A stretch of 64,000 nt of DNA from Antedon mediterranea (Eukaryota > Echinodermata > Crinoidea > Comatulida > Antedonidae): positions 3,534,001 to 3,598,000 of the forward strand of contig NC_092679.1 of the NCBI RefSeq assembly GCF_964355755.1. Reading direction: 5' to 3'. Shown one piece after another: positions 15,851 through 58,775 of the stretch; positions within the stretch are counted from its first letter, which is position 1, and each line of letters starts with the position of its first letter. The notes beneath the pieces were generated by a model. That model saw nothing but the letters and a program-made list of their open reading frames with translations, did not search any database and was not told the DNA's origin. A program made the position numbers and the translations under genes.

Positions 15851-16270
<420 letters not shown>

Positions 16271-18130: not shown

Positions 18131-18159
18131 ACACAATTTTGCAGATTCTCAAACCAAAC

Positions 18160-18175: not shown

Positions 18176-18299
18176 ACCACATGTCCAAAAGAGATTTAAT
18201 TTGCATTACAGTATATGTGTACGTTTATTATTTGTTCTTATTTCACATAATATAGATTGGAGTATACCACAAACTCTATTTTATTTCTAAATATCGCAT

Positions 18300-19080: not shown

Positions 19081-19126
19081 GAACTGGACAATGGACACAT
19101 TGTAATTTTTGAAATGGGCGTTTTAA

Positions 19127-19345
19127 TTCCCGCCTGAAAAAAACAAAGAAAAAGGTAAAGCAAATACACAACAGTTAGTATTTGATATTCAACAAAGGGG
19201 TATTTCAACACAAAGCTCAAATTCCCGCCCAAAGAACAAAAGCAATACCCTGTATAATGGAGCCAGTTATCGTTGGCGCGAAAAGCTATGATTGGCTAAT
19301 TCAATCCTATCACTCCGAATGGGAGTCTCGGATAGGCTATAAAAA
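19127..19345 (+). promoter_or_regulatory. H2A-2 promoter elements
   Basis: TTCCCGCC at 19127-19134, TTCCCGCCC at 19222-19230, and a close match to the palindromic E2F site, TTGGCGCGAAA, at 19273-19283. Inverse CCAAT (ATTGG) at 19291-19295 and TATAAAAA at 19338-19345. Confidence 0.8.
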
Positions 19346-19392
19346 CCCGGTATAATTAAATTTGGTATCATTTTCTATTTTAGAAAGAATAA

Positions 19393-19785
<393 letters not shown>

Positions 19786-31078: not shown

Positions 31079-34000
31079 ATGTCTTTGAGACTTAGAAGCA
31101 GGTTTGCTGGTAGAAATCTAAGGGATAGGACTTCATTGGTAAGCATTTTACATTGAATTTTGTGCTTAGTTTGTGACAGCAGCTCAGTACTACTGTATAA
31201 GCATAGAGATATTAATGGTATAAGTAGGTGCTAACATATTCAACAGTAAGATAACACAGTTCGTTGGGGGTTGGGTGTTTGTTTTGTTAAGCCTATATAT
31301 GTAGTAAACAATATATCTAGCATTCTTTAATACAAGAGATAAGTTATGGTTCACGGGTCATCTACACTGTATATATTTCATTTGTAAAGCATAAAATAGT
31401 GGTATTGCGAGTGTGTTGCTTTATAATATGATGTGTTAAAATGTATTTCACCATGAAGTACACATACCGGATACACGCTAGTACTGTACCATTGCAGTTT
31501 AGTGGTGGGTGTCAAAAAGTAATGGGTGGGTGAAAAAAAGCATATTTTCAGGTACACAGAAGTTGTTTGGTTGGTGCTGTGTTGATGTTTGACTGGGTAA
31601 AAGATGGGTATTCCCACCCAACTTCACCCAGCAGCACAATTACCTTATTGTTTTTTAAATACAGACGATGATTAACTGTGTTATGCAAAACCTAATGGCA
31701 ATGATTTATGATCATTTTATTGTTGGTCGCACTCTAAATATTGCTGCCTTAGTTGTTTGTTGATTAAACATAAATTATTGGTTATTTGATTAAACATTTA
31801 TTTTTACAGAAGTTAAAAATGGCTGACGAAGACAGTCAACTTACGCCACCAAAAGTAAGCTTATCAATGACTTATGTTCAACCAATATGAATATTAATTG
31901 ACACTATCAAGGCTGCATACATTTTCTTTTATAGTTTATATTCTAAATTGAATACCACTGCATATAATCCCATGCTCGAGTATAATCCCATGCTCGAGTA
32001 TAATCCTTCTTTAGTAAATCCATTCTTAATGCAATCCGATTATAATCCCACCCCCTATGTTCACCAAATTTAGTACCCAAAGACTATTTTTGTTTATATA
32101 CAGTACTAATATTTAACAATTTGTTGATCTTAATTATATGAGATGAATTTTCCAAAACACATATACTTACTGTAAGTTACTACCTGTACATTACACCACC
32201 TTTAATTTTGTATTCTTTATTGTGTACAGAAACGTGGTGCTGGGAGTCCCGGTCGAAGCCCTGAGCGAAAACGTAAGCGAGTTCAAGCGGAATATTATCA
32301 ATCTGATGTAGTGGATGTTTTCTCCAGGACTTCAGCTGCTAGGACCCCAACTGCTACAAAACAAGTGTTCTTTGACAAGGGAGCCTTCCTTGCTGTCAGA
32401 GGCCCAGAAGGTATATTACTTTTAAAGCTCTATCTACACTGTTAAACTTTATGTGACAAAAAATGTGATGTGCCCATATATGGACATGATGATGTCATCT
32501 CACTATCATATTTGGGCATATCACAAACCATATTTGGGCACATCATAATTTTTTTGTCAAACTAGTTTGATAGTGTAGACAGAGCTTTAGGGATCTGTAA
32601 ATGTAAAATATACCAATAATACATAAATCAGATCTTTCTTTTCCAGTCTACTTTAAGAAATTGCAATACAATATATTTAACAAATGCTGTACTTTAGAAA
32701 CATAACAAGGAAGCTAAATTATAAAAAGCTTTTTAAAGAACATTGTATTTATTGCTTTTCTCACCACACCCCTGATTACATATCACAAGTATGTATATTG
32801 TTTCTTTTCAGAGCCACCATTTTATATTTGCCAGACCAACCAGAATGTATTTACGTCATCCAAAAGTGTAAAGATACGTTGGCTAGAGATAAAGAAGTCG
32901 CCCGACCTCTACATCTTGTCCTACAACGACACCGTTGACCTAGAGAGTGTGCTGACAGAGGTCAAACTTACGAAGAAGGATAAAAACTCGTTTATTATCG
33001 CGACCAAGGAGATTAAACGTGTGGAGAAGATTATTGACCTAGCAATCAAGAAGGAAAATGGAGAACTGAATGAAAAAGATGGTGAGTGAATTCATAAAGA
33101 AGCTTATATTCAAAATTTATTAACATTCACCTTAACAACATTTACAAAAAAGAACATAGATATAATAGTAACAGCAATAATAAAAGCATTCAATGAACAT
33201 GTATGTTGCATAAAGGTCGCTCAGTATCAGGTGGAGACCTGAATAGTCGAGCGCCTTTCAAACGCCGAACATACATACTTCATAACTGGCTTGATGATAT
33301 CGGGATCATTTGCACCCATAATAAATAAAAACTTATATTATATTGTTTGATGTGTATTGGTTAACATGTGTTCACCTCTGTTGTATGTTGGAAATTCAAT
33401 AGACTCATTGCAGCAATGCGACATTGAACATTGATTATATTATCTCATAGTTTTGCTATAATAGTACCCTTGGTGTACTGTAGGCTAGACACCTGAAGCT
33501 ATTAGCTTAATGAGTAGATTTTTGTACTATATTGCATAGTTTTGATTTTATCAAGTAATTCCGAAATGTTTTGAATTTTAGTTGTCTTGAATAAAGATTT
33601 GCTACCAGATGATGATGATGAAGAGGACGAGGATGAGGAAGAAGAAAAGAAGAAACCAGTTAAGAAAAGAAACGCACGAAAGGCACCAGCCAAAAAGAAG
33701 GCGGGAGCAAAGTCCAGGGCTGCATTGAAACCGAAACCAAAAGCCTCCGTTAGCCTTGTATCAGACAGATTGAAAAATAAGGCTAGACAGAGGCTATCAA
33801 CATTAAAACGTATGCTATTGTTTTTATTTATTCTTTAAGCTGCATTGTACTGTCTACCAGTGGTGGTTGAATATTTATTTAATTACAAATTAAAATAAGA
33901 ACAAATATATAAATTATTTAAACTATTTTCACAAATTTCCTCATCCGATAATATTTTAGAAAACAAAACGAAATCAAAAGCCAAACTGACCAAGTCAAAG

Positions 34001-37000
34001 GCAAAGAAACCATTGAAAAAGAAAGTGAAGAAAGTTGTGAAGAAAGTGAAAGAAAAGAAGAAGAAAGAACCAAAAACTAAAAAGCATCCTAACCAGTTAC
34101 TTACACCAAACACAAAAATAGAGGTGGTTATGAAAGATCCTTGCTTTGAAATTAAGTAAGTTGTTTTAAAATTCAAATAAGCCTAATTATCTTGTTAAGT
34201 GGTAATTAATCCCTCTCTTAAAGATGTATTGTCTCCAAAAACTTAAAAAATTAAGATTAATGAAATCAGACTTTGAATGGATTATTTTGTAGTTTTATTA
34301 AAGTTAATCACTTTCATAGAAAAAAAAGACCTTCAAAAATAGTGTTTTCACTTAGAAAACGACAAAATAAATGGTTAATTTCAACCAAAAGCCATTGTCT
34401 GGCAGACAAGAATTTTTGTGCTTTAAATTATTACTATAATTAATTTAAAATAATTATTATTATAAACTATTACGTAACATTAAAATGGCATATACATTTT
34501 TACATGGCATTAAAATATTTTTTAGGGTGACAATATATCTTTAAACCTTTTTTTTTTAATAATTTGAAATTTAAAAAAAAAATGTTAATCTTTATCAAGG
34601 GCTGAGAATGAAATGCCTGAAGTTTCTCACGTGGTCTATGCAAAACGAGCGATTCGAGCAGTTCTCACCAACGACATGGCTCTGCTGCGTCGACTGATTG
34701 ACGAAACCAAAAAGGTGTCGACGCTTTTTTTGGCAAGAAGCGTAAATGTTGAGGATGATGCTATGTCTTACGCAATCATGAATAACAACCATGCAGCAAT
34801 TAAGCTCCTAGGCAAGGAGATCGTAGCAGTTGATAAGGACAGTGCAAGGAGGTGTGACGTTCCAGACAGTATCTTGGAGAGCCAGGGCACTGGAAGGTAA
34901 GCCTGCAATTTGATTGGTTAATTACGCATCACATGTTATTTAAAATTAGCCATACCTAACGAAAAAGTGATATCTAATGGTGATAATTAACATGATCTAA
35001 TGCATGTTCAGCTTTTTGTGAACAATTTAAGAATTTCTGCCACCTGACGTTGGATTATCGCGTTAAAAAATCAACTTCTTGTGCACGCCATCTACATCTG
35101 TTCTAATCCGCGTTCAAAGTTGGAAATATTCTTACAATTCAACTCATAAACATTTATTATTTTTATACTGTTTTATGGCTATCACCAGGAACTATGATAA
35201 ACACATTAAAAATGTCGCTCTAAAACGAAAAATCAGTTTTACGGGTAATTTTTAGACGATAGTTGTATTTTTTATATTTTTAAAATTTTACTGTGACAAT
35301 TTTCGAAATAATATTTATTTTTATAAAAAAAACTTAATACTTTTTTATGATGTAGGTATGACTTTAATACATTTGGACATGCTACAAGATCAATCTCAAT
35401 GAGCAGAGGAAGTAAAGAAGGAAATAATGCCTTCACAAAGGTTAGTTAATACCATATCCAAACTTTGCCTTCTCTATTTTGTTAGGGCTAATTCTTCTCC
35501 CTATGTCCCTCTGTATTTGTCAGATGTAATTTTAAAACATAATTTGATTTAATGTGCACGTTTTTAGATGCGAGTAGTTTAAAAAACCTATTTCTTTTCA
35601 AATTCACTTGTTTGATTTTTGCGTTTTTTTGCGCTATTCTATTGTTAGTCAACTGAAGCTATTGTTAGTTGAAAGGCTGGTTACATAACCATTACACCAC
35701 ATACTCGCATATACATGGTTGTAGTGAAATTAGCCTCAATCACAAACAGCATTAAGACACACACAAATATATATATATATATATTATTTTTTTTTTTACC
35801 GGAGAAACCTTATGTAGGAAAATTTTACAGTAGGCGGAGGTATGCACTCTCGGAGTGGCTTTCTAGTTTGTCAATATCTTTAAGAGGTTTTTTTCTATTT
35901 ATATAGACAAGAAAAATACATTGGCAGCCAAAATCTGAACTGCTGCATGTTTTTTTACAATAAACATACAATAAAATTACAACATTCAAATATAAAAATC
36001 CGTTTTCTTTTACCATTCATCATTAGCGATCATAACATTAATGCTTTCACAAAGGTTAGTTAATACCATATCCAAACTTTGCCTTCTCTATTTTGTTAGG
36101 GCTAAATCTTTGCCTTATCCGTCTGTATTTGTCAGACTCTCTTGCCCTATCTCATTTGTCAATATATTTTAGGATATTTTTTCTGTGTGTGTTTGTCCAT
36201 GTTATTGCACAGTATACAGTAATTTGTATCTTGGTATCTTTATTTCATAGTTCATTTTGTTTGAACTATGAACTATGAAATAAAGATACCATAATACAAA
36301 TAAGTGTATAGACAAGAAAAAATCAGTTTTCTTTTAACATTCATAAATTAGAAATCCTAATCTTGTCATCTCTGTATTTCCTAAACTATCCTCTTTTAGT
36401 ATGCATCCATGTTGTGGATCCAAGCCTTCAAAGGTTTTTAAAATGGAGTTTTAATATCAGAAAAAGTAATCAATGTTTTTATTGCAGGAAAAACATCAAG
36501 TACAAGAATCCTTTGTATTGGGTAGAAAATACACTGAACTAGCCCTGAAATGTGGGGCTAGCAAAGCCACAGTGGACATCTTATGTGCTGTTTTCCCTGA
36601 CTGCCAGGTTAGTAGTACACAAGATTCTAGTAATTTTTGAGTCTTTTGTAAAAGTATATGATGCAACACTAGGATTCAAACAGTTGTTTAAATTTGTTTA
36701 TATTTCATATGCATCCAACAGCGAGTAACTCGCCAATTGTACAGGATGGATAAACTATTTAATAATTTATCGTGCTAATAAAGTCTCATTTGAGGCTTAG
36801 GGAGTGGAGTTGAAAGATTTGTGAGTGACACTAGGTCCGGATTGAACCCCGGACCTTAAGATTGGAAGACAAACACATTAACCACCAAGCTACAGCTCCA
36901 CTACTTTTTGTTGTAAAGAAGCAGTTAAATGTGATTTATGCTGTATTCACAAATAATTTCAACAGTATTTTACTGTTTATTCTCTTTAGTCCGACTTCAA

Positions 37001-40000
37001 CATGTACATAACAAAAGGTGTTCGTGAAGGGAATCGTAAAGTACCAGCTTACTTCATTCAGCAATCTGTAAAAGCTGGCGGCTGTGGATTTAACTTTCTA
37101 CACCATGAGGTAACTCAGGGATTTTGTTGATAATGATTAAAAGTCAGTTTGTCAAAGTAGATAATTATTTGGTGACATTAAAATGGCATATCCAACAGAA
37201 AAATGTGTAAGAATTATATTTTCAGGGGGACAATACATCTTTAATATTAACATATATAAGTTTTAAAACATGCCAGCAATCTCTTAGAAATAGATGGTCA
37301 GTGATTTTTAAAAAAACTGTGCAACAGTCAATTCACAATTTGGTTTCATTTATTTCGGCTATTTTTACATAGTATATTGATAAGACCAGAATATAAATAC
37401 TTATTTCTTTTCAGGTTTTGACTGCCTCTCATCCAGATGAACTAACTAAGTTTAAAGCCGTGTCCGTAAAGAAAAAGCCCTACGACAATGACTGTGTAAG
37501 ATATTAATTTACAAATATTTTAGACTACTACCCACTAACTCCAGAGATGGACTAATTTCTATTCATGTATTATACATATTTTGTATTGTAGAGGCCCTGA
37601 TGAGACAAGCTTTGCTTCTAGTGCGGGCCCAAGTTATTATTGTTATAACTGAATAAATGTGTATGAATGAATGAATGTATTTTTGTCTAGTTAATAGTTC
37701 CCTTTCAATGATTTTAGCACATGAAGTAAAAGTGTTAATTGATTAATTACTTTAATTGAATAAAAGCCTAAAGCCCATTAATGCACATTAGCTGAAGCGG
37801 TAGGGGATTGTTTCCCTGTTTACTGATTATAGTAAGTGTTTATGTGGAGCACAAATCTCTGTCTACACTATCAAACTAGTTTGACCAAAAAAAAAACGGT
37901 GATGTGCCCAAATATGGTAGTGATATTCCCAAATATGGTAGTGATATGACATCATCATGTCCATATATGGGCACATAACTTTTTTTTTTGTTACATGAAG
38001 TTTGATAGTGTAGACAAGCCTTAATTAAATTTTTCATTAACATTTATTTTCTAGGCTACTCCGCTACACTTTGCTGCTGTTAATCCAAACCCCAAAATCC
38101 TAGCAAAACTGCTGGATAGCTTACCCGAGTACAGCCTGCCAGACAAAACAAATAGGAAGCCTATTCATTATGCAGCAGCCTGTGAGGGCTCTGGTCCACT
38201 TGAGCTCCTACTCAACAAGTAAGTATGCCATTTTGGTTTTATATATTTAGGCAAATTGCCAAGGATAATCATAAGCGAATTCATTCACTCTCATTCTTAA
38301 ATGTGGCAATCCCATTAACAAGACAAACATATACACAAGATGCTCTACATTAACAAAGTCTTATTACAAGTGTTTGGGAGTGGAGTTGTAATTTTTCTTT
38401 ATGATATGACAGGACTTGAACCAGGAACCTTGGGTTGGTAGCCAAGTATCATGACCACCAATCCACTCCATGTCCTAGCCATGTGTTGTCGTACATGTGT
38501 TTTCTTGGAGCTTGTGTTTTTTATGACATAAATTTATATCTGTTAATTTTCACTAGATCAGCTAACCCGGAAGAAACTGACAATCAAGGCACAACACCTT
38601 TGATGATTGCAGCACAGACAGGCCGCACGCAAAATATTGAAATTTTAATGCGCAAAATTAAAGCAAGTATGTCAATAAACTTTTTCTATTTCAAATATTT
38701 TCCAATATAATACAAATGACTAAAGTTCTGTCTACACTATCAAACTAGTTGTGTGATGTGCCCAAATTTGGTTGTGATATACCCAAATATAGTAGTGATA
38801 TGACATCATCATGTCCATATATGGGCACATCACAGTTTTTGGTCACATGAAGTTTGATAGTGTAGACAAGGCTATATAAATAATAACTGATTAACTATTA
38901 TACAAATAATGAATGTTTATGAGTGCAATGGTACAAATAATGGCACGAGGTGAATGATGAAAGGTTATATCAACGAGGCAAAGCCGAGTTGATATAACCT
39001 TTCATCATTCACCAAGTGCCATTATTTGTACCATTACACGAATACAAAACATTCATTATTTGTTTTATATAACATATAGACGTTTTTTTTTCGTACACAA
39101 AAATGTTTCAAAAAGTACTATTTAACGATCGTTGAATAGTGCGTACTATTGCACGCCATGTGACCCACATTCGTCCAATCAAATGACAGGAATTTATATA
39201 GGTGTTATATAATATTATCTATTGTATATGTGTATGATTTTAGTTATAAACGTTATATTTTACAGACAATCCTGGTGAGAAATCTGGCCTACACAGGAGA
39301 GGTCCAGCAGGCAAGACACCTTTACACTTTGCAGCACAGAATGGCCATACTGTGAGTTCAATTAAAATTTAATATATTATTGTTCATATAATCCCATGTT
39401 TGAGTACAATATCATCCCCTAATTTAGGCTAAATTTGGACACTTTGGTAAATACCCTTGATTCCAGCTCTGGGCCATTGATTTTAAATACAATCAATCCG
39501 ATTATAATCCCACCCCAAAATTTTTTGCAAAATGATATAGCCCAAGCCCATTTGGAATGTTACTCCATACCAAGTTCCTAATTGTATATTTCATATTTTT
39601 GATAGGATGCTGTAAAAGCATTAATCAAGCATGGTGCGGACATTGAGGCTATTCTTAATGCAGGAAACAACAAAGAAACAGTGTTAATGCAGGCTTGTAA
39701 ATTTGGCCACTTTGGCACAGTGAAAGCACTGGTAGAGTTAAATGCCATCATTGAGAAGAAAGGTAAAAATTATTTAATTTTTTATTATTATCTAAAATAT
39801 AAATCATTCAATTTTAGTATTATTATTCAAAATATTGATATCCAATAACATTCAGAAATATTAAGATACTGTTATTCAATTTATTTACAAAACCATTTTT
39901 TGGATCCCTAAAATTGAAGAAGAAGCACCATTTTAGTACTTCGACCAACCTCACTTTTTTCAAATTATTCAAATTGCCTTCAGAAATGGAGATTAGAATC

Positions 40001-43000
40001 ACATTGAAAAAAAAGATACAAAATAATATGGAAACAATACAATACAATTCAATTCAATTTCTTTATTGCTGCAAATGCCATCAAGGGCTAATATCCACTT
40101 AAACATGAGTGAGTGAGTGGCCGAGCGGTTAAGACAGTGGAACCGCAATTACGTAGCCATAACATCGGCATGGGTTCGAGGCTTACTCACTCCATGGTTC
40201 TGGTGGTAGAACGAGTCTTCTCGGATAAGGACTATAAACCTAGCTCGTGTGCACTTTAAAGAACCTAGTACATCTTTCGAGACGAGTAGGGGGTTACCCC
40301 GGTGTATTAGTACATCACAGCCACTGATCACCAACTGGGCCCTCTGGGAGACCAGTCTTTGACTGAAGAGGTTACCCAGTATAAATATATATTTCAATTC
40401 AATTCAATTCAACATACTACATCATACAAACATAATTATACATATTTACATTTAAAATTTAAACACATAAAAATTCTTAGAAAGTCCTCAGTAAATGTTT
40501 AAAATAGTTACTATGAATGTTATTTTTAAGTGTAAGGTCTCTTTTTTTAGTACAGTTGTAACAGTGTTACAGATACCATGGGAATACAACTAGCTTTCAA
40601 TACTTTAGTTTCTTGTTCACACCTTTATAATATTAAAGTAAAGGGGTCTCTGTAATTTTTTTAGATAAACTGCAGAAAACAGCACTTATGCATGCTGTTA
40701 TAAACGGTCATTACAAGATTGTGTGTTTCTTGTTGAGGAAGGGAGCTTCACCAAACTCAAAGGATTCATCAGGCAACACTCTAGTACATTACGCTGCGGC
40801 CTATGGTTGGTGGTATTGTTTACGTGTTCTATTAAAAGCTGGTGGAAGCGCCAACACACCAAATGATTGGAAGGTTAGTTAGTTTTTTATTTACATTTGT
40901 GTATATTGTTTGTTGTTATTTATTTATACTGGGCGACCTTTTCAGTCTGATCTCCCAGAGGGTCCAGTAATAGATCAGTGGCTGTGATGTACTAGTACAC
41001 CGAGGTAACCCCTACTTGTCTCAAAAGATGTACTAGGTTCTTTAAAGTGCACATTAGCTAGATGTGTACGCTTGACCTATGGTTTATAGTCCTTGTCCAA
41101 GAATACTCAGTCTACCACCAGAACCATTGAGCGAGTGAGCCTCAAACCCTTGCCGATGTTATGGCTATGTAATTTATAGTGCCACTTTCTTAACCGCTCA
41201 GCCAATCACTCACCTAAATAGCTTCATAGGCATTATATATTAATTATGTATAGAGATTGTCCTAATAACAAGAAATTACTTAATCTTTTAATAATTCTAT
41301 TACAGATACCTCCACTTGGTATAGCAATTATGACTGGCAACCGAGGCTGTGCCGATCTTCTCCTTGAACAAGATGAGGTAGACATCAACTTCAAAGACGA
41401 TAACGGATATACGCTGGTCACATACTTGGTCACGGCGCCACTCAGCAGTAACGTAATGGAAGATTTGAAGCACCTTGTTGAAGACTTGAAGGCTAGAGTT
41501 GATCAGACTGATGTCAAAGGTTGGACAGCTGTGAGTAGAATTGAACTTGACTTCTATACTCCCTACAGTGTTATCCTTAGATAATAGTGAAAAGCTTACT
41601 AGCATATTTACTGTTACATAGACACCAAGATCATGTATCGACCTTATTTAGATCTGATTATATGCACATTTTATATAAAATTGGCAGTCATTTTGAAAAA
41701 TGTCCACTATTTCAATACATACAAGGCAAAGAATTAAGTGTCAATAGAGTGATCAGAAGGGATTAATTAGGATATCTGGCTATGTTGACAGCTTCTAACA
41801 TTTTACTCCCCTTACTCAATTTCTTCCCTAGACTAGGAGGCACTTTTAAATTCACGGCAACACTTTGTGATATATATTTTTAACCGTGCTCCTCTTCTCA
41901 GTCAATATTTGTGTATACTACTACTAAAAAAACATACAAGACTTCATATGTAACTAAATACAATTTTTTAAAGCATGGGGTAACGCATTTCTTATTAAAA
42001 TGCCTATTATCATTGTCACCATTTGTTGACATATATTTCTCTATATTTCACTGCAGCTTCATCACCTTACAGAACATGATGTTGTATCTCCTCCTCATGT
42101 AAGTCTACTTTTATTTTACCATTTAAATATTATGTGTATGAATTTATTGTGTATTCTGATACATAATTGAACTTTGACCTTACATTCCAACATGCATTAT
42201 GGAAGACCCATTATACCTATATTAGGAGATGATTCTAAACTTATTTGATTTTGTTAGATATGGTGAAAAAACTGAGTTACTCATCTAAACAAAATTCAGA
42301 TTGTTTTTTTGTTTTGTTTTATATTGATATTGGGTGACCTCTTCAGTCAAAGACTGGTCTCCCAGAGGGCCCAGTTGGTGATCAGTGGCTGTGATGTACT
42401 AATACACGGGGGGTAACCCCCTACTCGTCTCTAAAGATGTACTAGGTTCTTTAAAGTGCACACGAGCTAGTTGTGTACACTGGACCTACGGTTTATAGTC
42501 CTTATCCGAGAAGACTCGTTCTACCACCAGAACCATGGAGTGATCCTCGAACCCCTGCCGATGTTATGGCTACGTAATTACGGTTCCACTGTCTTAACCG
42601 CTCGGCCACTCAACTCACATTTACTCACGTTTACATTTTCTGTTACTAATCTTCGTTCTTTACCATCTCTTGTGTTAAAGGGTCATCTCTATAGAACCCC
42701 TGTGCAGACCAGACAAGCAATCAGTTTGAAACTGGCAGAAATGCTGTTGAAATATGGATGCCCTCTATCGGCGAAAACAGACGATGGCAAAACAGCGGTT
42801 AATCTAGCGATAGAGCAGGAAAAGTGTAACATAGAGTTGATCCAGCTCCTGGTCAAGAAAGGATGCACTATCTCGCTAAGCACTAACAAAGAAAAAGAAA
42901 CAATTCTTCATACGATGGTAGATAAATGTAAACAAAATGACGTATCAAGTTTGATTCAGATTCTAGGCGATCGGGTAAGAAACAACTAATAATGAACGTG

Positions 43001-49000: not shown

Positions 49001-52000
49001 AGAGACCATGTGGTAGAAGTTTGAACTCATGAAATGGGGCATATTGAAAATCTTATATTCACACCAACAAACAATTAAAAAACATGTATAACCACAAAAA
49101 AATAATTTTTTGTTTATTTTACAGATTGTTCTTAAAATGTGGAGGTTCATTAAATATTCGTAGTCCAGTACCGTATGTTGAACCAGCACTTGCCAAGTTC
49201 TTGCCTCAACCAAAGAGCCTCAGCGAAGTCTTTCACGGTGCATCCGAGCGTAACATTGATCAGACACCACTCATTCTGTGTATTCGTAATGGTCTCTTCA
49301 AAGCTGTTGACTTCCTACTGAAGAATGGTGCTGATCCTAATTACCCAGACAAAGATATGGTCACACCACTGATGCATGCTGTCAAAAAGGTAATAAGAGT
49401 TTTTTTCTGTTTTTATATTTTGTGTTTATCTACTAAATTGTTCCTGTTTTTCTCTACTAAAATTATTTTGTTTGCCTCACTGTTAACTTTAACAGAAAAA
49501 TGAAATTTATTTTGATAGAATGATGTTGACATTGTGAAGTTATTATTGAACCATTCCTATGTGATTAAAAAGAAGGCTGAAATCATCCGAGGCTTTCAAC
49601 TAAATTATTCTAAATTAAGTTACCTTAACTGGGGAAGAAAGAAAGGAAAGCAGCCTAGGGCGAGAGGTAAACACTGCCTTATTTTCTCTTTTTTTTCAAA
49701 GTCTTGTTGTTGATATATGTCCACCTCACTCCTGAGGACGATCAAAGCATATTGATCGAAACGTCGAGAAACTCAACAGTTCTTTTCAGAACTAATATAC
49801 GTGGTATATCAACAAATATCTTTTTTTCAAATGTAACTTCATAATTGATTCATAATTTCAATCCCAATATTCTTTAAATGTTGTTTATTTAACACTGATG
49901 AATTCAGCTTATATTTTCAATTCAATATATCTCAATTAAAACCGGTAAAGTCCCAGCTGACTGGAAAGTAGCCCATGTTGTACCAATACATAAATCAGGC
50001 CCTGGTGACAATGTTGTAAACTATCGCCCCATCTCCCTGACGTCAGTGGTCGGGAAAATGCTTGAGCGCTTTATTGGAAAGCACATGGTTTCTCATGCTG
50101 ATAAACTTGGCCTTTTGCCTTCCACACAACATGGTTTCTGTAACAAAAGATCGTGTGTAACACAGCTTGCCACAATTTACCACCAATGGGCTAAATGTTT
50201 AGATGTAAACAAACCGCCAAGAGTTGATGCTGTGTTTTTAGATTGGTCCAAGGCTTTTGACAAGGTTTGTCATTCACTTCTCATTAATAAGCTACAAAAA
50301 TATGGCTTTGCCGGTAAGCTCATGAGTTGGTTACAATCTTTTCTGATTAACCGTAGCCAAGCAGTGTTATTCAAAGGTTCACTTTCAGATTGGAAAGATG
50401 TATTATCGGGGGTACCTCAAGGTTCCGTGTTGGGACCTATTCTTTTTAATTTGTATACATGTGAGCTCCCATCAATAGTTAACTCAAATATTGCATTATA
50501 TGCAGATGATACTGTGTTGTTCAGAGTAATAAATAATCAAGATGATTGTTTGAAGCTTCAAGACGATCTAACTGCCATAGCCCTATGGGGCAATGATAAT
50601 TATATGTCTCTAAATAACAGTAAATGTAAGGTTATGTCGATCTCTAGATCGAAAGTAAAACAGTATTTTCATTATGAAATTGATAATAAAGTACTAGAAA
50701 GTGTAACAGAATACAAGTATCTTGGTGTTACCTTGTCTTCAGATTTGAAGTGGAATAAACACATCTCTCTGACTACTGGTAAATGCAATAAACTTGTAGG
50801 ATTTATTAAGAGGTGTGTTAGAACCAATGATCAGACCGTTTTTCCTAAATTATTTAAGTCTATCATTAGGCCTGTAATTGAATACGCTTCACCTGTCTGG
50901 TTTCCATTTCTGCAAAGCACCATCAATCAGATTGAATCTGTTCAGAGACGCTTTACACGATCATGCTTCCCACGTTTTTTTCACATGGATTATGACATGC
51001 GGCCGTCATACGAACAAAGGTTACGGACTCTAAAATTACCCACGATTTATAATAGACTTAAATTCATCCGTGTTAAATTTGTTGTGAAGTGCCTCTGTAC
51101 AGATTTCCTAATTGATGGTGCTTTGCTACCTAAACCTGTTGAACGTAGAAGTGAGAAACTTGTTTTCAGACATGAGAAGTCTCGTACTAATGCTTTTTTT
51201 TATTCTGTTTTTATTTCATTTCCACGGATGTGGGATGAGATTCCGGTATATATAACAGACATGTTTATTTATAATGATTGCAATTTTTATTCTGTTTTAT
51301 ATAAATTCTATGTTACCGGGTTGTTAAATGTTTATCCTTGTTAATGTTATTTTGCCACCAGCACTATCAGGAGAGTCTTTTATAGCGATATTTTTTGCTT
51401 TTTGACAATCCGCCAGGATAGTGTTCTGCGCTTTTTCTCTGCTTGTTGTTGTTCTATGTAATATATGCTTTTTGTATTGTTTTTGTATTATTTTTTCTGG
51501 ATAATAAATGAATATGAATATGAATATGAATTGTTATCATAGGTTTTCAACAAAACGTATTTAGAAATAATTACAATGATAGTGATGATGAGGATGGAAA
51601 TTCATCAGAAGAAGAAATGGATGACGATGATGAGGATAATGATAATGAAGATGAGGAGATGGATGTAGATGATGAAGAAGATGAAGAGGGTAAAGATGAT
51701 GAAGAGGCAGATGAAGATATGGAAAATGGTATCGATGAAGAAAAGAAAGAGAATGGAAAAACAGATGCTAAGAAATCAAAGAAATCAAAGAAGAAGACAG
51801 GTAAGAAAATTCATGTTTGCTAGAAACTTGTAAAGGTTGCACTTTATAAAAATTTACTACCAATATTCAATATTATTCTCCTATAGAAAATATTAAAGCA
51901 TATTACTTTCACATATCACTTTTACTATCACTAACTTACTATTACTTTGTGTTCTCAAATTTACTTTGTATAAAGTACAACATTATGTCAGAATAAGCCA

Positions 52001-55000
52001 AACATCTAACCAATTTATAGAAAGTTATTACACCTATATTAAATATTATTCTCCTATGCTTTATTAAAGAATATTCCGTATTATAGTGTTCTGAAATGTA
52101 CTTTGTATAAAGTACAACATTATGTCAGATTAGGGCAAACCAATTTATGACCAATTTATAGAAAGTTATTAATAATTTAGGTATTTGTATAGCGCCAGAA
52201 TCAACTAAACCGAAGTAAAAATCAAAGGCTCTTATATTGGATGTTAAAAAGATGCGTTTTAAGTTCTTTTTAAAAATAGCAATAGAAGTTGAATGAGTAA
52301 AATGACGAGGGAGAGAATTCCAAAGAGAAGCAGCAGAGAACATAAAAGACCTTTGTCCATAAGATTTGGTGTTAATTATTACATATGTATTGAAGAGTAT
52401 ACTTTTTTCTTATCTGTACAATGATTTTTTTTTAGATTATCTTCTTTATTTGATATGGATATATTATGTAATCATGGTTTTTTGAAATAAAGAAATGAAG
52501 AATTATTGTATTTTATAGAAGATTTTAAAATGACAAGCAATGTTAACTTGAATGCAACCGATTCAAAAGCGCGTAATGTGATCCATCACGTTGTACACTC
52601 AAACGAAGAAGGAACGTACCAGAATGTGCAGATGTTAGAGCTCCTTGTGAGTGTCGGGGCTTCGTTAGACCAGAAAGACGTGAACGGCAAGACGCCTTTG
52701 GACTACGCTATGAACGTCAGATCGACTGAAATGACAGCGGCCATTCAAACGTTAAAGAAGGTGGCCGAGAAAAATAGGGTTAGTGATTCCTTAAATTTTC
52801 AGCAATCAGCTAATACTAAAAGGTATGATGACATCTATCTATGTATAAGTTTTTATATGCCGCCATACAAAGAACAAAACAATATTAGCATTATTAATTA
52901 AAAAGAAAAGTTTTAAGTTGACGTTTAAATAGATGTGCTGATGACATAATTTTTTTTAATTAATCCTTTTGTTTACATTTGTAAGGTCAAGCCTGAGGCT
53001 CTGAAGGTCAAATGGTCAGACAACATCCAATGGCAAGGGGAATCTCCGGACTTCCAGGAAGATTCCAAGAAAATGCTGCAAAAGCTGGAAGAAGAAATCC
53101 GTGGAGATGACCCAGACGACAAACCGTCTGCCCAAGTTGATGACAACTCTGGATTAACTGAGGGCGGGTGAGTTTTTTTTATGTGATATTGAATGTGATG
53201 GAAATGATGATGTCATATCACTTCCATATTTAGGCTTATCACTACCATATTTGAGCACATCAAATAACAGAGGCTGCATCTACAAAAGAAGCTTAGACCA
53301 AACCTTCTGTCTGAAGTTGGTAGAAACTAAACAAGAAGACTACACAGGACATTTTTGCAGTTAACTTGTGTAAATTCGAAAAATATTTTCTACTATTTCT
53401 TGCTTACAAATTACTTTATGCCTTTTTTTAGAGTGGTACTAATAGATCCTGAACTAAACATTCCATATAATGCTGTTATGACCAAGGTCGAAGTTCGCTA
53501 TGGTTTACAAGGAATGAATAATTTTTACAAGCTGCAGGTAATAATCATTTTACAATTTTTACTAATTTTCAGTAATAAATTTGTAATCATTTTTTCTCGC
53601 TACAAAAGCAGAACTGTTTTGTAATAATTTACTCTATAAATATAGATTATTCCTGATATTTAAATTGTTTAATTTTTAGAATTACAATGGAACCCCTATT
53701 GAGGGACATGCATAGTGTCAACTTATTGTGGGTGTCCCCTCAATTGACGTGTCCCATCAATCGATGTGTTCCCTCATTCGATGTGTCCCCTCAATTGAGG
53801 TGTCTCAAATAAGGAGAGCTCCACAATAATAAAAATGTGGAATTACCTTTTTATCTAGGTGATTCATCAAAAGGGAAAAGATGTATATGCGTTATTCACA
53901 CGTTGGGGCATGATTGGACAAAGTGGCCAGTTCCAATGTACACCATTCTCAACAAAGGAAGAAGCAGTCAAAGAGTTCTTGAAAGTATTTAGAAGTAAAA
54001 CTGGAAATAGTTGGAGTAATGTTAAGAAGTAGGTTCACTGATGCAATAACAATAATAACACTCTTTTTTTTTTTTCTAAAAATCAGTTATTATTTAAAAA
54101 AAATATCCTTAAAATAACATTTATAATTTAAACCAAAGCTTGATTATTTATTTTACTCCGTTTTTTTTTTTTTTCAGTTTTGAGAAGCAACCAAAGAAAT
54201 ATCGGTTAGTCAACGCTGATCCCTTGAAATCTAAGAGAGTTTATAAAGGAGAAAAGAATCCATCGTTTAGTAGTAAAATTGTATCAAAGTTACCAAGCCG
54301 TGTTATAGATGTAATGAAGAGTCTGGTAAGATTGTCATCATTGTTTTGATCTCTCTGTCATTTTAGTTTACACAGCTTTTTAATAAACCTCTTTAAATTG
54401 ATGTAACACTCGGTTTCTCTCTTTGTGTTTATTCTATATCTCATTTGTTGATGAAGTTCTGTCTACACTATCAAATTTTATTTGATAAAAAAATGTGATG
54501 TGCCCATATATGGTCACGATAATGTCATTATTACTACCATATTTGGGCACAGACGTTTGATAGTTTAGACAGAGCTTTAGAATTTTAAACCATTTGCAAT
54601 GTTACATGTTCTATGATTTCTACACTCTACAAAAATTGGATCATACTAAGTGTTATGTAGTCTGCTATTTATATTTAAAAACATCAATTTTTTATCAATC
54701 AGACAAATCACAAGATGTATGAAGCCTCCATGAGAGGTATTAACATTGACACCTCTTACTTACCAACCTCTATGATCTCGCGCGATGTACTCATGAAAGC
54801 CAAGAAAATCCTTACAAAAGTAAGCGAAAACTTAAAAGAATGTAACCGTCTACGAGATGAAAATCTGCTACAGGAAATCGAGAAATTCCAAAGCTTGATG
54901 GATGAGGTAGATATATATATATATATTTTATATATTAATATAGGTTGCAGTATGTATTTTTAACCAATTTATTGAGAATTTTTTTATTAAAACATATATC

Positions 55001-58000
55001 CGATACTATAATGCTTAAGTGAAGTTGAGTTTAGCAGTGTCCTCGCTAAATCTAATTCTATAAATTATTTTTATCTCTAGATTAATGATCTCAGCAATGA
55101 ATATTACGAACTCATTCCCCACATTGACTTCTCGTACCAAAATATATCACCACTAACGGACGAAAACACGCTCAAAGAAGCTGTTGAACTGATTACCAAT
55201 CTACTGGACTATGAGGTAGCAAGTAAAGTGATCCTGGGAGCACGCTTCAAACAACAAGGTGTGTACAGATAACATTATATCCTCTGTTAAGCTCTGTTCA
55301 CTTTTCTGTAAAACAAACAAAAATAAATACATGTTTTAACACTATAGCCAATCCCTAATTATGGATAACTCTATTCAGGGGACACTTTCCTGTGAAACAA
55401 ACAAGGGGAAATACATGTTTTGACATTACAGCCAACCTCTATTCAGAGGACACTTTCCTGTGAAACAAACCAGGGGAAATACATGTTTTGACATTACAGC
55501 CAACCTCTATTCAGGGGACACTTTCCTGTGAAACAAACAAGGGGAAATACATGTTTTGACATTACAGCCAACCTCTATTCAGGGGACACTTTCCTGTGAA
55601 ACAAACAAGGGGAAATACATGTTTTGACATTACAGCCAACCTCTATTCAGGGGACACTTTCCTGTGAAACAAACAAGGGGAAATACATGTTTTGACATTA
55701 CAGCCAACCTCTATTCAGGGGACACTTTCCTGTGAAACAAACAAGGGGAAATACATGTTTTGACATTACAGCCAACCTCTATTCAGGGGACACTTTATTG
55801 AGTCCTGAAGATGTCCCCTAGGATTTGCAATATTTAGTTTCTGCAGATACAAGTCATGTATTTTTTTACAGAGGTGAACCCACTTGACTACGTATACCGT
55901 ACACTTGATTGCCAATTGCAACTGTTGAACGAAGAATCCGGAGAAGCACAACGTATTCTAAGATATATACACAATACGCGTAAGTTTTTTTAATCTACTA
56001 AAGCTCTGTTTACACTATCAAACTAGTTTTACAAAAAAAGTGTGATGTGCCAAAATATAGCAGTGATATGATGTCGCCATATATGGGCACATCATATTTT
56101 TTCGTCACATAAAGTTTGATAGTGTAGATAGAGAGCTTAAAATCAATTGCTCAGGTATAATACTCCAACTCCTTATTTAATTCTCTCAATGCCAAACTGT
56201 TCCACATTATCAAATGTGCTGTATCAGCCATTGTCACAAGAAAAAAAAAGTTACTAAAATTCACACTATTTTATATCTACTTTTTAACAGAGGCACATGG
56301 GAACGTATCCATAGAGGGCATATTCCGCTTAAATCGTAGCGGTGAGGAAGAACGTTTATACAACAAAGGCGTTAGTAATCATATGTTACTATGGCACGGA
56401 ACGCAGTCGGCAAATCTTATCAGTATTTTAAAAAAAGGGCTTTTAGTTGCCCCTCCTGAGGCACCATCTACAGGTTATATGTTTGGAAAGGTTTGTATCA
56501 ATATTTATAAGTTTATAGTAATAAATTAAATGCAGCAGTTTCAACAAGAAGATTCTTTGACATTTTTTGGGTACTAAGTCCAGAATGCTTGTAATTATGT
56601 TATGTAGTTCAGCTGTAGCCTATCCTTGGTCCAAGGACCAAAGTTCAATCCTAGACCTAGTGCCAGGTATGACTGTTTCTACTCCACTCCCTAAAGCCTG
56701 TTTTCCTGTCGACGTTTTTCAACACTATCGTCGTTGATCGTTAACAGTTCAACGACGATCGTTTGAAAACGATCAAGTTGAAATGATAACGATAGCGAGT
56801 ACCTTTTCCTGTAAATTGTTAACATTTCAATGTTTACGTAGAGGATCGCCAATTTTTGTTAACGATAGCGTTGAATAACGTCGACAGGAAAACAGGCTTA
56901 AAGGGTCTTTCACACCTGTTCTGGAACTGTGCCGGTTTATAACCATGAAATAGTTAATTCATCCCCTGTAATTTGTTACAGTTACATGCTGTTGGGTGCG
57001 TATGAACTAATTATAATCTTTTACATTTTCAGGGGATCTACTTTGCAGACACATTTACAAAGAGTTCTGGTTATTGTCACTCCCGTGGTGAGGAGGACAG
57101 CAAATGGATGCTTCTCTGCGAGGTTAGCTTCTAAATTCATTTTACTAAATACAGATTTGTTGTAAAATTCTTCTGCGATATTCTTTAGTGTTTACTTCCA
57201 TCCATACTTGTCGGTAGTCTTGTAGATTTGAGAGCTTGTTGAATGAATAAAGAGATTATTATTAATTATATGATTCAACTGGGGCCACAAATAAAGATAA
57301 GTCTGATCTACAACGTGTTGTTATGTATGCATCACGTCTTATTGGAATAGAACGGAGCACTATTGAATTCATTTTCAGGAAGAGAGAAAACACATAGTAT
57401 ATTGCTAGATTCAGGCCATCCCATGCATAATGTATTTGAGATGTTACGTAGCGATAGACGTTACCGGTCCATCACTTCTCATACTAATAGGTTACGCAAC
57501 AGCTTCTATCCAGCTGCCATTCGGGCACTGAATGCTAGTTGGGAAACCGTACGAGATTGATGTGACATTATAGCATTTAATTGGGTTTTTGTTTGTTATT
57601 TATATCTGTATTTTGTTTCTCAGAGCAAACACAATGTCTATGTATATATGTTGTTTTACTGTATATGCAAATGACCATAAAAGGAAATGATGATTTCCAC
57701 TAATGAATATGAATAATAAATGAATTAACTGAGTCATTACACTAATTAAAGTCCTACTGCCATACTCTGTTAAATTTATAATCAAGTACAACATGTTTTT
57801 AATAATAAATGTTAATAAAGGTTTTTTTCCAGAAATTGTTATAATAGTAATCGGTGTTTTCATAATATAGTAATTGTGTTTATTTTATTTACTTAATTGT
57901 TTTTATCTTTGTTATAGGTTGCCTTAGGGAAGTCCTGTACTATCTCTAACTATTACGAGTTTGATGAAACTAAACACACGAAAAATAATGACAGTGTTTG

Positions 58001-58775
58001 TGGTAAAGGAAGGTCATATCCAAATCCCATGGAGACAATTCATCTTCCCCAAGGTAATTTTATTAATATGTAGGCCCTGCAAGGGGTATCTTATCGCAAT
58101 TCATTTTGCCAATCAAGGAGGGAGATTCATTTTGTTGTTTTATTTACTATTACACAATACATTAATTAATTAATTCCTATACAATCACAGAAACTCTGCT
58201 GAGCAAGATTTATGGAAAATAGATTGTGAATGACTTGCATACCATAGTTTTTAATGGGGATGTTTATTTGAGGGAGGCGTTTATGCTGGGGAAGCGTGTA
58301 ACATGGGTGTAACACCCGGTGTAACATGTATAATCAAATAAATATGCCATAGATTTGAAAAAATACAACACAATATTAAGTGATAACATACATTAACATT
58401 TGTATCAAAATGCTTGGTGAATTGTAGATCATGTCAATCAATGAATGCTACACTACAAATAAAATTGTTTTGTAATAACATTTATTGTGTGGTTATTTGA
58501 GGAAATAAATAAAGGTCCTGGGGTGGGGGGAATTTATTCAAAATGATGTTTTATATGGGGGGGGGGGCATTTATTCGAATAAATACGGGGGGCATTTATT
58601 CGAATAAATACTGTATGTTATTTGCTTTATTCTTTTTCACTTCACAGGCGCCAAGATTCCTTTGGGTGAAATGCATGATGAAAGCAATTATTATAATCTG
58701 AATCACAACGAGTTTATTGTTTACGACAGTTCACAGGTGTGTCTCCGCTACCTGGTTCAATTCAAAGATGCATAG
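31079..58775 (+). CDS. Ankyrin-WGR-PARP protein (PME-5-type poly-ADP-ribose polymerase), 46 exons
   Basis: Poly(ADP-ribose) polymerase: transfers ADP-ribose from NAD+ to target proteins, presumably in the nucleus. Coding exons: 31079-31138, 31810-31854, 32230-32410, 32812-33081, 33582-33809, 33960-34155, 34600-34896, 35356-35440, 36488-36607, 36990-37109, 37415-37495, 38055-38218, 38557-38666, 39266-39351, 39606-39762, 40665-40873, 41306-41530, 42057-42098, 42681-42974, 43317-43490, 44051-44180, 44643-44824, 45193-45275, 45613-45725, 45895-46126, 46496-46655, 46851-46927, 47138-47402, 47832-47990, 48255-48372, 48604-48721, 49125-49389, 49519-49666, 51543-51800, 52519-52778, 52986-53167, 53432-53537, 53859-54028, 54178-54325, 54703-54906, 55081-55258, 55872-55979, 56291-56490, 57033-57122, 57918-58053, 58648-58775. 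All are GT-AG, phases close, total 7,362 nt (2,453 aa). Order: basic/acidic N-region, ankyrin repeats (~560-1900), acidic insert (~1732-1817), WGR (~1965-2090), PARP regulatory (~2107-2270), catalytic (~2270-2453). Unlike tankyrase it has no SAM domain. C. elegans PME-5 has this layout and similar length. A second in-frame Met at 31819 is an alternative start. Divergent from SRBD1. Confidence 0.93.
31966..32060. repeat. 'CCGATTATAATCCCACCCC' repeat, copy 1
   Basis: ATAATCCCATGCTCGAGT twice in tandem, then AATCCGATTATAATCCCACC. The same start and end phrases recur at 39390-39518 around a longer middle. Probable short interspersed element, in a PARP intron. Confidence 0.6.
32423..32588. mobile_element. 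MITE family A, full copy
   Basis: Begins 13 nt after the end of PARP exon 3. Both termini present; the CATATTTGGGCA segment is duplicated. Confidence 0.9.
34220..34542. mobile_element. MITE family B, full copy
   Basis: Ends AAAGATGTATTGTC and GACAATATATCTTT; the interior matches 3628-3943 (TTTTGTAGTTTT, TGTTTTCACTT and a CTGGCAGAC palindrome remnant). In the PARP intron 6, ~60 nt before exon 7. Confidence 0.85.
36041..36140 (+). repeat. Duplicate of exon-8 3' end and splice donor
   Basis: The sequence ATGC.TTCACAAAGGTTAGTT and the following ~75 nt repeat 35424-35520, which spans the last codons of exon 8, its donor and intron start. The copy sits 600 bp into the same intron. Confidence 0.9.
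36221..36303. repeat. Inverted repeat (~30-bp arms)
   Basis: GGTATCTTTATTTCATAGTTC (one internal piece of the left arm) is inverted as GAACTATGAAATAAAGATACC in the right arm around a short AT loop. In the PARP intron 8. Confidence 0.85.
36781..36901 (-). mobile_element. tRNA-headed SINE, type 2
   Basis: On - it begins GTGGAGCTGTAGCTTGGTGG and includes the B box GGGGTTCAATCC. Similar decayed heads lie at 38356-38470 (-), 47430-47505 (+) and 56600-56690 (+). Confidence 0.65.
37165..37242. mobile_element. MITE family B, right-end fragment
   Basis: Retains only the right end GGGGGACAATACATCTTT with ~60 bases of interior. In the PARP intron 10. Confidence 0.7.
37855..38022. mobile_element. MITE family A, full copy
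   Basis: Ends TCTGTCTACACTATCAAAC and GTTTGATAGTGTAGACAAGCC. It ends 32 nt before PARP exon 12, so lies in the acceptor region. Confidence 0.9.
38356..38470 (-). mobile_element. tRNA-headed SINE, type 2, decayed
   Basis: On - it shows GGTGGTCATGATACTTGGC as the A-box region and CCTGGTTCAAGTCCTGTC as the B-box region. In the PARP intron 12, ~90 nt before exon 13. Confidence 0.6.
38722..38873. mobile_element. MITE family A, full copy
   Basis: Starts 56 nt after PARP exon 13; the CCCAAAT..GGT segment is duplicated; right end GTTTGATAGTGTAGACAAGG. Confidence 0.9.
38903..39062. repeat. Long foldback hairpin
   Basis: Arms of ~65 bp: GGTACAAATAATGGCAC and GAATGATGAAAGGTTATATC on the left are inverted on the right as GATATAACCTTTCATCATTC and GTGCCATTATTTGTACC. 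A loop of ~11 bp (GAGGCAAAGCC). In the PARP intron 13. Confidence 0.95.
39110..39232 (+). repeat. Shared intronic element, copy 1
   Basis: Contains TGTGACCCACATTCGTCCAA and CAAATGACAGGAATT; the same sequence lies in inverse orientation at 48385-48490. It directly follows the foldback hairpin. Confidence 0.8.
39390..39518. repeat. 'CCGATTATAATCCCACCCC' repeat, copy 2
   Basis: Opens ATAATCCCATGTTTGAGTA and closes CAATCCGATTATAATCCCAC; longer than copy 1 by an internal segment. In the PARP intron 14. Confidence 0.6.
40108..40420 (+). mobile_element. tRNA-headed SINE, type 1, full copy
   Basis: A tRNA Leu/Ser-like head with A box GTGGCCGAGCGGTTAAGAC and B box GGGTTCGAGGC, then a ~200-bp body with GTGCACTTTAAAGAACCTAG and GGTTACCC, and a (CAATT)n tail at the end. 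In the PARP intron 15; the related copies at 40925 and 42322 lie in the opposite orientation. Confidence 0.9.
40925..41213 (-). mobile_element. tRNA-headed SINE, type 1, inverse copy
   Basis: Body phrases CTAGGTTCTTTAAAGTGCAC and GATCAGTGGCTGTGATGTAC lead to the inverted tRNA head ending TTAACCGCTCAGCC. More diverged than the other two copies. In the PARP intron 16. Confidence 0.88.
42322..42618 (-). mobile_element. tRNA-headed SINE, type 1, inverse copy
   Basis: Nearly as well preserved as the copy at 40108. It ends TTAACCGCTCGGCCACTCA and lies ~60 nt before PARP exon 19. An open frame runs from it into exon 19, but that is accidental. Confidence 0.9.
43077..43203. mobile_element. MITE family A, full copy
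   Basis: Compact copy; ends TAAGCTCTGTCTACTCTATC and GATAGTGTAGACAGAGCTTTA. In the PARP intron 19. Confidence 0.9.
43570..43805 (+). mobile_element. LINE 3' fragment (RT C-terminal remnant)
   Basis: Encodes LSTFTSAASRLWNELPTSIR followed by a KSALKTHLF-like end, the conserved C-terminal segment of CR1/L2-type non-LTR reverse transcriptases, then TGGCGCATTAAAAATTTGTA and a (TTA)n tail. 5'-truncated. In the PARP intron 20. Confidence 0.75.
44270..44386 (-). mobile_element. Tigger/pogo-like element, inverse copy
   Basis: On - it reads GTCAACTCTCCAAAAACC, then ACCAGACTTTCTGGAAAACC, matching 20891-21062 in order. In the PARP intron 21. Confidence 0.5.
44850..44992. mobile_element. MITE family A, full copy
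   Basis: Starts 26 nt after PARP exon 22. The left end lacks the ACTATCAAA part (AAGCTCTGTCCACACTAG); the right end is intact. Confidence 0.88.
45300..45560. repeat. Imperfect ~134-bp intronic duplication with CTTTGACC phrases
   Basis: GGTCAGCAGAAACTGACTGA occurs at 45369 and 45503. The whole block is made of degenerate 'CTATGCC.CTTTGACC' phrases. In the PARP intron 23. Confidence 0.75.
45764..45900 (+). repeat. Tandem duplication of the exon-25 acceptor region
   Basis: GCGACGCTGAAAATT through TTTTAAGCTGC appears twice (about 45764-45822 and 45839-45898). The second copy provides the acceptor used here for exon 25; the first carries a decoy AAGCTGCC acceptor. Confidence 0.9.
47513..47706. 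mobile_element. MITE family A, expanded copy
   Basis: Longest copy (~190 bp), with an extra GTGCCCATTATAGGACATGA segment; the right end is worn (GTTTGATAGTGTAAAAG). In the PARP intron 28. Confidence 0.85.
48385..48490 (-). repeat. Shared intronic element, copy 2
   Basis: Inverse of 39110-39232 (AATTCCTGTCATTTGATTGG and GTGGGTCACATTCCATGCAA). It starts about a dozen bases after PARP exon 30. Confidence 0.8.
48754..49060 (-). mobile_element. LINE 3' end fragment
   Basis: On - it ends GATGAATAAAGAATTTGAAT, the same tail as at 25915-26064. The upstream part has no intact frame. In the PARP intron 31. Confidence 0.5.
49732..49770 (+). repeat. Penelope-type ribozyme-like motif
   Basis: CTGAGGA, one extra base, GATC, a loop, GATC, then GAAACGTC: hammerhead-like core blocks in order, with the same one-base offset as at 10551-10585. 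In the PARP intron 33, upstream of an unrelated LINE. Confidence 0.45.
49902..51532 (+). mobile_element. 5'-truncated non-LTR retrotransposon (LINE) in PARP intron 33
   Basis: An open frame from 49902 to the TAA at 51342-51344 encodes the reverse transcriptase (~480 residues) but no endonuclease, so the element is truncated at its 5' end. Seen in order: KTGKVPADWKVAHVVPIHKS and NYRPISLTSVVGKMLE, motif A AVFLDWSKAFDKV, motif B SGVPQGSVLGPILFNLY, motif C LYADDTVLF, and a C-terminal region ending FYVTGLLNVYPC. The best family guess is the jockey/CR1-like group. The frame has no stops or frameshifts, so insertion is recent. A 3' UTR of ~160 nt ends in a GAATAT-type short repeat at 51507-51532, 10 bp before the exon-34 acceptor. 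No upstream ATG is needed; the frame opens by truncation. Confidence 0.9.
52170..52345 (-). mobile_element. LINE 3' fragment (RT C-terminal remnant)
   Basis: On - it encodes MFSAASLWNSLPRHFTHSTS, then IAIFKKNLKRIFL, the conserved end of CR1/L2-type reverse transcriptases. The rest of the element is missing. In the PARP intron 34. Confidence 0.75.
53178..53268. mobile_element. MITE family A, core fragment
   Basis: Only the GATGATGTCATATCACTTCC, ACTACCATATTTGAGCACAT core remains; starts ~11 nt after PARP exon 36. Confidence 0.6.
53432..54325 (+). other. PARP gene: WGR domain, exons 37-39
   Basis: A WGR fold of the type in PARP1/2/3, which contacts DNA: NNFYKLQVIHQKGKDVYALF, then TRWGMIGQSGQF and FSTKEEAVKEFLKVFRSKTG, ending KKYRLV. 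The signature Trp-Gly-Arg reads Trp-Gly-Met here. Confidence 0.88.
53690..53830. repeat. Degenerate 'GTGTCCCCTCAATTGA' minisatellite
   Basis: Four to five imperfect ~20-bp units of GTGTCCC.TCAATTGA, with palindromic CAATTG cores. In the PARP intron 37, ending ~30 nt before exon 38. Confidence 0.75.
54453..54579. mobile_element. MITE family A, full copy
   Basis: Ends AAGTTCTGTCTACACTATC and GATAGTTTAGACAGAGCTTT. In the PARP intron 39. Confidence 0.88.
55330..55800. repeat. 68-bp minisatellite, ~7 copies
   Basis: The phrase CCAACCTCTATTCAGGGGAC recurs every 68 bp (ATTCAG at 55441, 55509, 55577 and on). Units are nearly identical except the first one or two. In the PARP intron 41, ending ~70 nt before exon 42. 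Confidence 0.97.
56000..56139. mobile_element. MITE family A, full copy
   Basis: Starts 21 nt after PARP exon 42. Ends AAAGCTCTGTTTACACTATC and GATAGTGTAGATAGAGAGCTT. Confidence 0.88.
56694..56899. mobile_element. MITE family C
   Basis: Perfect 20-plus-bp inverted ends (left AAGCCTGTTTTCCTGTCGAC; right GTCGACAGGAAAACAGGCTT) around an interior of repeated AACGATCG and AACGATAGCG words. In the PARP intron 43, between the two catalytic-domain exons carrying His and Tyr. Only copy seen in the window. Confidence 0.92.
57270..57720 (+). mobile_element. LINE 3' fragment (RT C-terminal remnant)
   Basis: Encodes HPMHNVFEMLRSDRRYRSIT, then SHTNRLRNSFYPAAIRALN, the C-terminal signature of a non-LTR reverse transcriptase distinct from the CR1-like pieces, followed by ~130 nt and a GAATATGAATAATAAATGAA tail. 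A further tail-like phrase (TTGAATGAATAAAGAGATTA) precedes it at 57238. In the PARP intron 44. Confidence 0.75.
58500..58620. repeat. Short G-rich tandem repeat
   Basis: GGGGGGCATTTATTCGAATAAATAC is present twice (written in full it exceeds the limit only by a few bases; key words are GGGGGG, CATTTATTCG and AATAAATAC), after a G12-type run. Ends ~30 nt before the last PARP exon. Confidence 0.7.

What the first reader, a model, noticed from the sequence alone, without database searches (positions are those of the whole stretch)
31079..58775. Large ankyrin-WGR-PARP gene of the PME-5 type in a probable deuterostome
Seen: 46 exons join in frame into ~2,453 residues with ankyrin repeats, WGR, PARP regulatory and catalytic domains and an intact H-Y-E triad. 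Known: vertebrate tankyrases combine ankyrin repeats with SAM, not WGR; the ankyrin-WGR-PARP order is known from nematode PME-5. Inference: an ancient PARP class kept here and absent from vertebrates, possibly linking DNA-break sensing (WGR) to a large docking surface.
Basis: partly seen in the sequence, partly recalled or inferred. Interest (0 to 1): 0.75.

Follow-up and report, generated by a model that had tools for sequence, protein, structure and literature searches.

The report
Ankyrin-WGR PARP gene (Clade 1-ank)
This is a large animal gene for a nuclear-type ADP-ribosyltransferase that joins a long protein-docking scaffold to the DNA-repair kind of PARP enzyme; the kind is already described from worms, amoebae and the lancelet, but this copy lacks a key DNA-sensing residue and sits in a genome that also has a true tankyrase.

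Summary
My own splice-chain search plus hand correction gives exactly 46 exons at 31079-58775 and 2,453 residues, all introns GT-AG. [quoted passage not shown] H, Y and E are in place. The catalytic domain is not a tankyrase one (tree split 100/97; joining it to tankyrases rejected, p = 0.009) and is nearest to PARP1/PARP2. The kind is known: Otto 2005, Citarelli 2010 (Clade 1A) and Perina 2014 ("Clade 1-ank", including C. elegans PME-5 and the lancelet). So this is a new member of a known kind. (1) The genome also carries a genuine tankyrase, PARP1 and HPF1, but no PARP2 or PARP3 was seen. Perina's suggestion that tankyrase and Clade 1-ank replace each other does not fit here. (2) The WGR motif reads W-G-M: the Arg whose mutation abolishes DNA-dependent activity in PARP1, 2 and 3 is Met2018, so break sensing by the WGR is uncertain. 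(3) The C-terminal Leu-Trp that contacts HPF1 is absent. Expression, taxon and orthology to PME-5 were not testable here.

The parts
31079..58775 (+). 46-exon gene for a 2,453-aa ankyrin-WGR-PRD-PARP protein (coding extent)
31079..31138 (+). exon 1, start ATG in the context ACCATG; an alternative in-frame ATG lies at 31819 in exon 2
32230..33081 (+). exons 3-4: N-terminal domain (about aa 76-185), beta-rich with a C-terminal helix in a low-confidence model; no Pfam, PDB or own-genome relative
33582..34155 (+). exons 5-6: acidic then strongly basic low-complexity stretch, with NLS-like basic runs; exon 5 is phase-neutral
34600..49666 (+). exons 7-33: long ankyrin solenoid, about 20-25 recognisable repeats; best PDB relatives are generic ankyrin solenoids
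51543..51800 (+). exon 34: Asp/Glu-rich low-complexity segment, phase-neutral
52519..53167 (+). exons 35-36: last ankyrin-like repeats and the linker into the WGR
53432..54325 (+). exons 37-39: WGR domain, aa 1977-2058; motif reads W2016-G2017-M2018
54178..55979 (+). exons 39-42: PARP regulatory (helical) domain, aa 2093-2242
55872..58775 (+). exons 42-46: ART catalytic domain, aa 2256-2451, with H2305, Y2339, Y2350, E2433; ends QFKDA-stop without the Leu-Trp end of PARP1/2

Best explanation
A single-copy, probably nuclear ADP-ribosyltransferase of the Clade 1-ank (PME-5-like) kind. Proposed working: the helical domain holds the ART domain shut; the WGR touches a DNA end or another ligand and releases it; the ankyrin solenoid brings docked partner proteins to the active site to be ADP-ribosylated. 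Shown here: the domain order, the intact H-Y-E site, a catalytic domain outside the tankyrases, the retained 5'-phosphate-pocket residues (W2016, K2047, Y2065) and the relay Asn1994. Inferred: nuclear location, docking by ankyrin repeats, activation by DNA, and independence from HPF1. The loss of the WGR arginine means activation is either weakened or wired differently from PARP1-3.
For: Gene model and domains. Tree and AU test: outside tankyrases, nearest rows PARP2 and PARP1. Of the PARP2 WGR contact residues named in PMC8190142, W151, K183, Y201 and N129 are kept, N127 is Gly as in PARP1, K130 is Asn and R153 is Met. PME-5 is nuclear, chromatin-associated and DNA-damage-inducible (summarised in PMC2964712).
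Against: R591A (PARP1), R140A (PARP2) and R103A (PARP3) abolish DNA-dependent activity (PMC4081085), and this position is Met here; all comparison sequences in hand keep Arg. No expression data. The tree gives long-branch warnings for the window and PARP3, and PARP1-3 plus the window is not recovered as a clade, though not rejected (p = 0.10).
Confidence: 0.83

Rival explanations
1. Two adjacent genes: an ankyrin-repeat protein (exons 1-33) and a WGR-PARP gene (exons 34 or 35 to 46), joined falsely by the model across the retrotransposon-bearing 1.9-kb intron 33.
For: Intron 33 is the longest (1,876 nt) and holds an RT ORF; exon 34 is low complexity; there are no transcripts.
Against: Ankyrin-like repeat sequence continues in exon 35, two exons before the WGR; phases are compatible across exons 33-34-35; the single-protein ANK-WGR-PRD-PARP order is published from several lineages.
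Confidence: 0.08
2. A derived tankyrase that swapped its SAM domain for WGR-PRD.
For: Ankyrin repeats plus a PARP domain, as in tankyrase.
Against: The catalytic-domain tree separates it from tankyrases (100/97) and the AU test rejects the union (p = 0.009); a genuine tankyrase with SAM is present separately; the ankyrin region matches ankyrin-1/2 best, tankyrase well down the list.
Confidence: 0.03
3. A lineage-specific fusion of an ankyrin gene onto a PARP1 or PARP2 copy in this animal, convergent with PME-5 and not orthologous to it.
For: The catalytic domain is nearest to PARP1/PARP2 (41% identity); PMC4245714 itself argues that ankyrin-PARP combinations arose several times.
Against: No intron position within two alignment columns of one in the PARP1 gene of the same genome; deep divergence; same architecture in worm, amoeba and lancelet (literature).
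Confidence: 0.06

Closest known systems
Clade 1-ank / Clade 1A PARPs (C. elegans PME-5, Dictyostelium ADPRT3/Q54E42, Branchiostoma floridae protein)
   Same: ANK - WGR - PRD - PARP order; catalytic domain of the PARP1 type (PMC1266365, PMC2964712, PMC4245714)
   Different: Sequences could not be compared directly; here the WGR Arg is Met, and a true tankyrase coexists, unlike C. elegans and B. floridae as described in PMC4245714
PARP1 / PARP2 / PARP3
   Same: WGR, helical domain, ART with H-Y-E; 5'-phosphate Tyr as in PARP2/3
   Different: Ankyrin solenoid instead of zinc fingers/BRCT or a short N-terminus; WGM instead of WGR; PARP1 R878 is Leu; no Leu-Trp C-terminus; intron positions differ from PARP1
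Tankyrases (Clade 4)
   Same: Ankyrin repeats plus PARP catalytic domain
   Different: WGR and helical domain in place of SAM; catalytic domain not in the clade

Membership tests
[quoted passage not shown]
   one protein only as a gene model, no transcript
Clade 1-ank (PME-5-like) PARP | Catalytic domain not in the tankyrase clade | tested here: met
   TNKS split 100/97; union with TNKS rejected, p = 0.009
Clade 1-ank (PME-5-like) PARP | Catalytic domain inside Clade 1 (with PARP1-3) | tested here: inconclusive
   nearest rows are PARP2 and PARP1, but a window+PARP1/2/3 clade is neither recovered nor rejected (p = 0.10); long branches
Clade 1-ank (PME-5-like) PARP | Orthology to PME-5 / Dictyostelium ADPRT3 by phylogeny | not testable with these tools
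   no eukaryote proteins of these species in the collections
Clade 1-ank (PME-5-like) PARP | H-Y-E catalytic triad | tested here: met
   H2305, Y2339, E2433
DNA-dependent PARP (PARP1-3) | WGR Trp and Arg required for DNA-dependent activation | tested here: not met
   W2016 kept, Arg is M2018; PMC4081085
DNA-dependent PARP (PARP1-3) | Activation by DNA breaks | not testable with these tools
   needs biochemistry
Tankyrase | SAM domain between ankyrin repeats and PARP domain | tested here: not met
   no SAM; WGR and PRD at that place

The most novel reading that the evidence does not exclude
A Clade 1-ank PARP kept beside a true tankyrase whose WGR no longer relays DNA breaks in the PARP1-3 way: activated by partners on the ankyrin solenoid or by a rewired DNA contact, and working without HPF1, so that ankyrin docking and not HPF1 sets its targets.
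Probability: 0.2. Interest if true: 0.55.

Novelty: new member of a known kind. Interest (0 to 1): 0.33.

Why it matters
PME-5-like PARPs are little studied, and vertebrates lack them. Finding one together with a genuine tankyrase in one genome shows that the two ankyrin PARPs are not simply interchangeable, as had been suggested from species that carry only one. The Met in place of the WGR arginine gives a natural test of whether that residue is indispensable for DNA-dependent PARP activation. No PARP2 or PARP3 was seen in this genome, so this protein may be the only WGR PARP besides PARP1.

Tried and rejected
Viral collection scans with the C-terminal part and with the own PARP1 found no relatives. 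The prokaryote scan gave three Armatimonadota WGR-PRD-PARPs, used in the trees, and one contig titled Verrucomicrobiaceae that looks eukaryotic. Taxon from mitochondrial COX1: no hit. N-terminal domain: no Pfam, no PDB sequence match, no own-genome paralogue; single-sequence model pLDDT 65, fold search without a significant match. Ankyrin region as a tankyrase-type ARC: best matches are generic ankyrin solenoids. Two exons of the automatic chain (49737-49803, 57491-57548) and wrong boundaries of others (for example the start at 42531) were rejected because they broke domains or better splice sites. Papers on echinoderm ankyrin-PARPs: none relevant. A WGR-PRD-PARP tree of 8 rows left the window's place within Clade 1 open.

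Full report
CHECK. A dynamic-programming chain (splice-site scores plus a coding model) started at the ATG at 31079 gave 43 exons ending at 58775. The coding model was trained partly on open stretches of this locus, so it is not a blind test. Reading the sequence, I dropped two spurious exons, corrected boundaries of three others, and added five. All 45 introns are GT-AG; phases are 0:23, 1:13, 2:9; exons have GC 0.416 and introns 0.314. Freedom from stops is built in by the method; the domain matches are the independent evidence.

DOMAINS. Pfam gives ankyrin repeats (Ank_2 E 8e-106, 11 stretches), WGR 1977-2058 (2e-19), PARP_reg 2093-2242 (2.5e-24) and PARP 2256-2451 (1e-50). About 20-25 repeat-like cores are visible. 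The best solved relatives of the C-terminal part are PARP1 (E 5e-73), then PARP2; tankyrase catalytic domains are not in the list. The ankyrin part resembles generic solenoids such as ankyrin-1/2. An N-terminal domain (about 76-185) has no relative in Pfam, PDB sequences or this genome. Its single-sequence model is beta-rich with a long helix, but of low confidence, and a fold search found nothing significant. Basic runs suggest nuclear import (inference).

CLADE. A catalytic-domain tree with human PARP1-4 and TNKS1/2, this genome's PARP1, tankyrase, two PARP4s and macro-type PARPs, and three bacterial PARPs separates tankyrases from the window at 100/97 and rejects a window+tankyrase clade (p = 0.009). 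A window+PARP1/2/3 clade is not rejected (p = 0.10) but not recovered either, and the place within Clade 1 is unresolved; the program warns of long branches. Human PARP3 letters were recalled and confirmed identical to PDB 3c49. None of the ten introns in the C-terminal part lies within two alignment columns of an intron of the same genome's PARP1 gene (PARP1 junctions approximate), so a recent PARP1 copy is unlikely.

RESIDUES. Against PARP1/PARP2: H862, Y896, Y907 and E988 are kept; R878 is Leu. WGR contacts named for PARP2 in PMC8190142: W151, K183, Y201 (5'-phosphate) and N129 are kept, N127 is Gly as in PARP1, K130 is Asn, R153 is Met2018 (codon ATG). PMC4081085 reports that R591A in PARP1, R140A in PARP2 and R103A in PARP3 abolish DNA-dependent activity. 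PARP1 of this genome, human PARP1/2, three bacterial proteins and a eukaryotic PARP1 all keep Arg. HPF1 contacts (PMC8150716): the C-terminal Leu-Trp is absent (the protein ends QFKDA) and the loop holding PARP1 H826 is four residues shorter. HPF1 itself is in the genome.

GENOME SETTING. The gene is single copy. The only other WGR found in the genome is in PARP1, about 0.68 Mb away on the same contig, with zinc-finger exons upstream. Searches with human PARP2 and PARP3 found only these two genes and weak matches to other PARPs; searches are exon by exon, so absence is not proven. A true tankyrase lies on C4: a SAM-like stretch after ankyrin repeats, read by eye, and a catalytic domain matching human tankyrases at E 2e-93. 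PMC4245714 suggested, from C. elegans, B. floridae and Brugia, that tankyrase and Clade 1-ank can replace each other; here both are present.

KNOWN OR NEW. The ANK-WGR-PRD-PARP protein was described in 2005 for C. elegans and Dictyostelium (PMC1266365), named Clade 1A in 2010 (PMC2964712; PME-5 itself left outside the clades there), and reported in the lancelet in 2014 (PMC4245714). The finding is a new member of that kind.

MECHANISM. Most likely an autoinhibited ADP-ribosyltransferase that modifies partners docked on its ankyrin solenoid. The WGR probably still meets DNA or another ligand, but the missing arginine makes PARP1-3-style break relay doubtful. Shown: architecture, active site, separation from tankyrases, residue changes. 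Inferred: location, docking, activation and HPF1 independence.

Noticed in passing
window 8762-19782: Histone cluster, all on the + strand: H2A, H1, H4, H3, H2B, H2A.
   Followed up: partly
window 20312-28035 (-): SRBD1-like gene pieces (S1 RNA-binding and Tex_N domain) on the minus strand.
   Followed up: partly
window 49902-51341: Retrotransposon ORF with a reverse transcriptase domain (RVT_1) inside intron 33.
   Followed up: partly
window, e.g. 37860-38016, 38729-38868, 43084-43195, 56007-56130: A MITE-like element with inverted ends TGTCTACACTATCAAACT: 23 end matches in the window against 0.15 expected.
   Followed up: partly
window 55369-55796: 68-bp minisatellite, 6.3 copies at 98% match, in intron 41.
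   Followed up: no
window 5065-5694: 84-bp tandem unit that reads as C2H2 zinc-finger repeats on the + strand.
   Followed up: no
window 62369-63568 (-): 400-aa open frame without any Pfam match.
   Followed up: no
L048: Contig titled Verrucomicrobiaceae MAG that appears to carry an intron-containing eukaryotic PARP1 with BRCT-like, WGR and PARP pieces: probable mis-binning.
   Followed up: partly
G000:C7:29.97M (L036) and C9:25.97M (L039): Two closely similar PARP4 (vault PARP) genes on different contigs.
   Followed up: no
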